From: Thermogemmata fonticola
GTDB lineage: Bacteria; Planctomycetota; Planctomycetia; Gemmatales; Gemmataceae
Reading direction: 5' to 3'
DNA: 64,000 bases
Assembly (NCBI RefSeq): GCF_013694095.1
Contig: NZ_JACEFB010000002.1
Span: forward strand, 62,001-126,000
This document shows positions 9,272 to 9,448 of this stretch, piece after piece. A model generated the notes under the pieces. That model had not been told where the DNA came from, made no database searches, and saw nothing but the letters and a program-made list of their open reading frames with translations. Within the stretch, counting starts at the first letter, position 1; each line of letters begins with the position of its first letter. Made by a program: the position numbers and the translations under genes.

Positions 9272-9316
9272 GTTACCCCCGCAAAACGGTGGTTCGGACT
9301 GGCAGTCTTGCCACTC

Positions 9317-9420
9317 GGGTGCAACCAAATTCTCTGGGGGTTCCCTGCCGGGCAGCTCCGCTAGTGTGGGGAAACACCTCGCGGGTTCAGCCCCCACCCC
9401 CAGAAAATCTGGTTACACCC
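9317..9420. mobile_element. MITE-like element with 25-bp terminal inverted repeats and 8-bp target duplication
   Basis: A 104-bp non-coding element. The left end (9317-9341, starting GGGTGCAACCAAATT) and right end (9396-9420, ending ATCTGGTTACACCC) are inverted repeats matching at 22 of 25 positions. The element is flanked immediately on both sides by the same 8-bp word TGCCACTC (9309-9316 and 9421-9428), a perfect target-site duplication. The 54-base centre has small hairpins (GTGTggggaaACAC and TGCCgGGCA) and no ORF. This is the architecture of a miniature inverted-repeat transposable element mobilised in trans by a transposase making 8-bp duplications (IS256, IS66, ISL3 or ISAs1 type are possibilities). 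No transposase is present in the window. Confidence 0.8.
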
Positions 9421-9448
9421 TGCCACTCCAGCGCGCGCAAAGTCGGTC

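What the first reader, a model, noticed from the sequence alone, without database searches (positions are those of the whole stretch)
9309..9428. MITE-like element with perfect 8-bp target duplication
25-bp terminal inverted repeats (22 of 25 pairing) enclose a 54-base hairpin-rich centre, and TGCCACTC is repeated directly at both outer borders. The exact duplication at the exact repeat edges is hard to explain by chance and marks a recent or well-preserved insertion of a non-autonomous transposon. No transposase or second copy was noticed in the window.
Basis: seen in the sequence. Interest (0 to 1): 0.7.

Follow-up and report, generated by a model that had tools for sequence, protein, structure and literature searches.

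The report
Multicopy MITE of ISKra4/ISMich2-type transposons
This is one of about thirty copies of a tiny, gene-less jumping DNA element in a planctomycete bacterium; it carries the end signals of a known transposon family (ISKra4/ISMich2 type), and one copy has split a gene that stays whole in related bacteria, so it is well documented but of an ordinary kind.

Summary
A 104-bp element (9317-9420) has 25-bp ends pairing 22/25, a 54-bp centre, and TGCCACTC on both sides. The genome holds 29 full-length copies (mean 94% identical). Eight are flanked by an exact 8-bp direct repeat at the exact ends, 11 if the border may move 1-2 bp; re-pairing flanks at random gives 0.46 on average. One copy splits a gene at a TGCTGTTC duplication; relatives carry that gene uninterrupted across the junction. 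Two 172-bp elements share the ends. The same ends bound a 1453-bp insertion sequence in Gemmata sp. IIL30 that encodes an ISKra4-family transposase as two ORFs in a -1 frameshift relation, as in the published ISMich2 group, whose relatives make 8-9-bp repeats. No such transposase was found in this genome; its one ISKra4-like IS has only partly similar ends, so the partner is probably lost or unassembled, or that distant relative acts in trans. Three loci hold two full copies separated by one 7-8-bp spacer, which may reflect circular intermediates (inference). New member of a known kind; modest interest.

The parts
9309..9316 (.). left target-site duplication TGCCACTC
   Evidence: sequence; exact repeat of 9421-9428
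9317..9341 (+). left terminal inverted repeat, 25 bp (GGGTGCAACCAAATTCTCTGGGGGT)
   Evidence: 22/24 identical to the IS end in Gemmata sp. IIL30 (L053 3001-3024)
9342..9395 (.). 54-bp non-coding centre, hairpin-forming
   Evidence: conserved among 29 genomic copies
9396..9420 (-). right terminal inverted repeat, 25 bp
9421..9428 (.). right target-site duplication TGCCACTC
   Evidence: sequence

Best explanation
The feature is one copy of a non-autonomous miniature element (MITE, 104 bp). It was multiplied by an ISKra4-family transposase (prokaryotic Mutator-like, p-MULT 4, most like the ISMich2 group) that recognises the ~24-bp ends GGGTGYAACCARATTYTCTNGGGG, inserts the element between staggered cuts, and so leaves an 8-bp duplication. 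Shown: structure, copy number, duplications, a gene interrupted by one copy, and the same ends on transposase-bearing elements of related genomes. Inferred: that this transposase type moved the copies in trans, and that its gene is now absent from, or unassembled in, this genome.
For: 29 full-length copies, pairwise 85-100%, mean 94% identical. 8 of 29 with an exact 8-bp repeat at offset 0 and 11 within 2 bp; mean 0.46, maximum 4 in 2000 trials when flanks are re-paired at random. The copy at C8:43243-43346 splits a ~199-codon gene; 24 other genomes hold a homologue, and the 14 aligned here read through the junction. Same ends on a 1453-bp element of Gemmata sp. IIL30 with 110-aa and 354-aa ORFs, ISKra4 family model E=1.9e-51; also next to transposase 3' ends in G085 and G093. 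Published p-MULT elements have 18-39-bp IRs, a conserved terminal C, 8-9-bp repeats, and in the ISMich2 group two ORFs joined by a -1 frameshift (PMC3942029).
Against: No transposase close to the Gemmata one was found in the window's genome (only a distant one at C7). 17 of 29 copies have no 8-bp repeat with 7 or more matches (two of these show an exact 7-bp repeat), so many are old or rearranged. By eye, the interior of the 104-bp element resembles the known IS ends only weakly beyond the repeats, so it is not proven to be a deletion derivative of that IS. The ISKra4 model matched below its curated cut-off (175 against 205 bits).
Confidence: 0.93

Rival explanations
1. The MITE is real but is mobilised by the genome's own distant ISKra4-family IS (C7:80597 to about 82438, 549-aa transposase; two further copies cut by contig ends on C14 and C18), whose ends are GGTCTGACCAGAAATTCTGGCGG, acting in trans.
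For: Same family; its C7 copy is flanked by an 8-bp repeat GTCGGAGA, one base outside each end; its end differs from the MITE end pattern at only 5-6 of 24 positions.
Against: The ends of the IIL30-type IS match much better (1-2 mismatches at the left end); the own IS has 32% identity to that transposase over about half its length and a different ORF layout (one ORF).
Confidence: 0.15
2. A conserved RNA hairpin or regulatory repeat (REP-like, terminator-like) rather than a mobile element.
For: Stable hairpin (z -3.6); the window copy lies between two co-directional genes.
Against: 8-bp duplications at the exact ends, insertion inside a gene, ends shared with transposase-bearing elements, no Rfam family.
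Confidence: 0.03

Closest known systems
ISKra4 family, ISMich2 group (p-MULT 4 Mutator-like transposases; PMC3942029)
   Same: 24-25-bp inverted repeats starting with G (ending in C), 8-bp duplications; the IS of Gemmata sp. IIL30 with the same ends has two ORFs in a -1 frameshift relation with an A-rich run (GGGAAAAAGCCC) before the end of the overlap, and the motifs DAG, GDG, D-x2-H and a later E expected of the catalytic domain.
   Different: The window element has no transposase gene and is 104 bp; the IS itself was not found in this genome.
172-bp elements of the same genome (L033 5003-5174, L034 4852-5023)
   Same: Same ends (0-3 mismatches), 8-bp repeats (GAGCCAGT; GTCAGGTC one base off).
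   Different: Unrelated centre and length; two copies only.
Elements of 172, 164 and 193 bp in other Gemmataceae (L055 in G064, L057 in G108, L062 in G093)
   Same: Similar ends; at L062 an 8-bp repeat GTGCCATG, at L055 a repeat AAACAAGTG.
   Different: Different centres; not the same MITE family.

Membership tests
MITE | short, no transposase gene, terminal inverted repeats | tested here: met
   104 bp, 25-bp ends 22/25
MITE | multiple dispersed copies | tested here: met
   29 full copies on 13 contigs
MITE | target-site duplication of constant length | tested here: met
   8 bp exact in 8 of 29 copies, 11 within 2 bp
MITE | empty site in relatives | tested here: met
   protein level, for the C8 copy only; not testable for the window copy
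ISKra4 family, ISMich2 group (as mobiliser) | IR 18-39 bp with conserved terminal C, 8-9-bp repeats | tested here: met
   against PMC3942029
ISKra4 family, ISMich2 group (as mobiliser) | transposase of the family between the same ends | tested here: met
   in Gemmata sp. IIL30, not in the window's genome; below the curated cut-off, 175 of 205 bits
ISKra4 family, ISMich2 group (as mobiliser) | transposase in two ORFs joined by a -1 frameshift | tested here: met
   reading frames 0 and 2 of the IIL30 element overlap as required; frameshifting itself not tested
ISKra4 family, ISMich2 group (as mobiliser) | place in the ISMich2 clade of a transposase tree | not tested
   no ISfinder reference sequences were held; filed on ORF layout only
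ISKra4 family, ISMich2 group (as mobiliser) | transposase moves the 104-bp element | not testable with these tools
   needs an assay

The most novel reading that the evidence does not exclude
The head-to-tail doublets (element - one 7-8-bp spacer - element) at three loci, and the copy beside an end fragment at a fourth, record the circular or end-to-end intermediate of Mutator-like transposition, in which the two ends are joined through a short stretch of flanking DNA; the MITE would then be a natural readout of that mechanism in planctomycetes.
Probability: 0.3. Interest if true: 0.4.

Novelty: new member of a known kind. Interest (0 to 1): 0.27.

Why it matters
No paper on MITEs in Gemmata-type planctomycetes was found in the held library (open-licence papers only). 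The family gives 29 insertion sites with known ends for a little-studied Mutator-like transposase group, an example of a gene split by a MITE, and a set of tandem doublets that bear on how this transposase group moves DNA. It is a descriptive addition, not a new kind of system.

Tried and rejected
Empty site for the window copy: in G001, the only other held species of the genus, the upstream gene matches on contig C193 and the downstream gene on C201, so the intergenic stretch cannot be compared. Rfam: only a chance match to a microRNA model, E 0.81. Papers naming ISKra4 together with MITE: none relevant by title and abstract. The sequence GGGTGTAACAAGTGT next to two copies looked like a third family of ends, but it occurs only twice, in a duplicated flank. 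The hit in G001 to 26 bp of the centre is too short to mean anything. Looking for other gene-splitting copies by joined open frames gave only the C8 case as convincing.

Full report
Check of the observation. The sequence at 9309-9428 is as described: TGCCACTC, a 104-bp element, TGCCACTC. The two 25-bp ends pair at 22 positions. The end motif, with up to 3 mismatches, occurs in the 64-kb window only at these two places and in none of 100 shuffles.

Copy number. A search of the genome in which the window lies (4.81 Mb, 61 contigs, 97% complete) gives 29 full-length copies, this one included, 88-100% identical to the window copy. Among themselves they are 85-100% identical, mean 94%, and differ from their consensus at 0 to 9 positions; the window copy differs at 4. 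A search of 58 other genomes of the same genus, family, order and class with the whole element finds no second genome with it; the one hit, in G001, covers 26 bp.

Target duplications. Eight of 29 copies have an exact 8-bp repeat directly at both ends, and 11 have one if the border may shift by up to 2 bp; re-pairing left and right flanks at random gives 0.46 on average and 4 at most in 2000 trials (single copies listed). Seventeen copies have no 8-bp repeat with 7 or more matches, although two of these show an exact 7-bp repeat; many copies are therefore old or have recombined.

An insertion inside a gene. The copy at C8:43243-43346 lies between TGCTGTTC and TGCTGTTC inside an open frame. With the flanks joined in a script, about 199 codons read through. 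A protein search of 398 genomes finds homologues in 24 other genomes, and the 14 of these aligned here run through the junction...ALVLF|DREGC..., which is well conserved. This is an empty-site test at the protein level. Neither half matches Pfam.

Which transposase. The ends, as a pattern with up to 2 mismatches, occur in 8 other genomes of 148. In G112, named through the collection scan as Gemmata sp. IIL30, two places carry the end next to a transposase gene; one is a complete 1453-bp element with both ends, L054 3001-4453. It encodes ORFs of 110 and 354 aa; the second matches the ISKra4 transposase model over most of its length (E 1.9e-51, 175 bits, under the curated cut-off of 205). The two frames overlap in the -1 sense, with the run GGGAAAAAGCCC just before the end of the overlap. 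The repeat flanking this IS is imperfect (GTTTAGTG against GTTATAGTG). In G085 and G093 the end is also followed by sequence that reads as the 3' end of a related transposase gene. This agrees with the published p-MULT 4 group: p-MULT elements have 18-39-bp ends, a conserved terminal C and 8-9-bp repeats, and the ISMich2 group has a two-ORF transposase (PMC3942029). I did not build a tree with ISfinder references, so the ISMich2 placement rests on the ORF layout.

No partner at home. Among the 51 end matches found in the genome at up to 3 mismatches, none bounds an element longer than 172 bp; one, at C17:15918, is a lone end. The only ISKra4-like transposase found (C7, with two pieces at contig ends) has ends GGTCTGACCAGAAATTCTGGCGG and an 8-bp repeat GTCGGAGA one base outside each end. 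It could act in trans, but its ends fit less well. A partner lost or missing from the assembly is more likely; this is inference.

Related short elements. Two 172-bp elements in the same genome have the same ends and another centre. Elements of 172, 164 and 193 bp with similar ends occur in G064, G108 and G093.

Doublets. At C24 (10 and 122), C10 (9697 and 9809) and C6 (22134 and 22244) two full copies lie head to tail with a spacer of 7-8 bp, and at C17 a copy is followed after 8 bp by an end fragment. At C24 and C17 the spacer equals the repeat on the other side of one copy. The paper reports that related elements form circles whose ends are joined through 6-10 bp of flanking DNA, which could produce such spacers; unequal crossing-over or repeated insertion at one site are not excluded.

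Verdict. The finding is real, the reading as a MITE is right, and the likely mobiliser family is identified. It is a new member of a known kind.

Noticed in passing
L015 10-225, L023 501-716, L025 501-714, L017 501-636: Head-to-tail doublets of the element separated by one 7-8-bp spacer (in L017 the second unit is only an end fragment); the spacers of L015 (reverse strand) and L023 are 7/8 alike (CAGGCGGA, GAGGCGGA).
   Followed up: partly
L033 5003-5174, L034 4852-5023: Second short element of 172 bp with the same ends and an unrelated centre.
   Followed up: partly
L065 2937-4778 (C7): The genome's own ISKra4-like IS: 549-aa transposase with a repetitive insert (STVTATPANA-type repeats), 8-bp repeat GTCGGAGA; two more copies run off the ends of contigs C14 and C18.
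   Followed up: partly
L101 2300-3010 (C8): A ~199-aa gene without a Pfam match, conserved in scattered planctomycetes with the motif LVLFDREGCG, is split by a copy of the element.
   Followed up: partly
L027 400-500 and L015 226-400: Two copies share a duplicated flank (GCTTGGTGGTTTGAGT and beyond), pointing to recombination or a segmental duplication.
   Followed up: no
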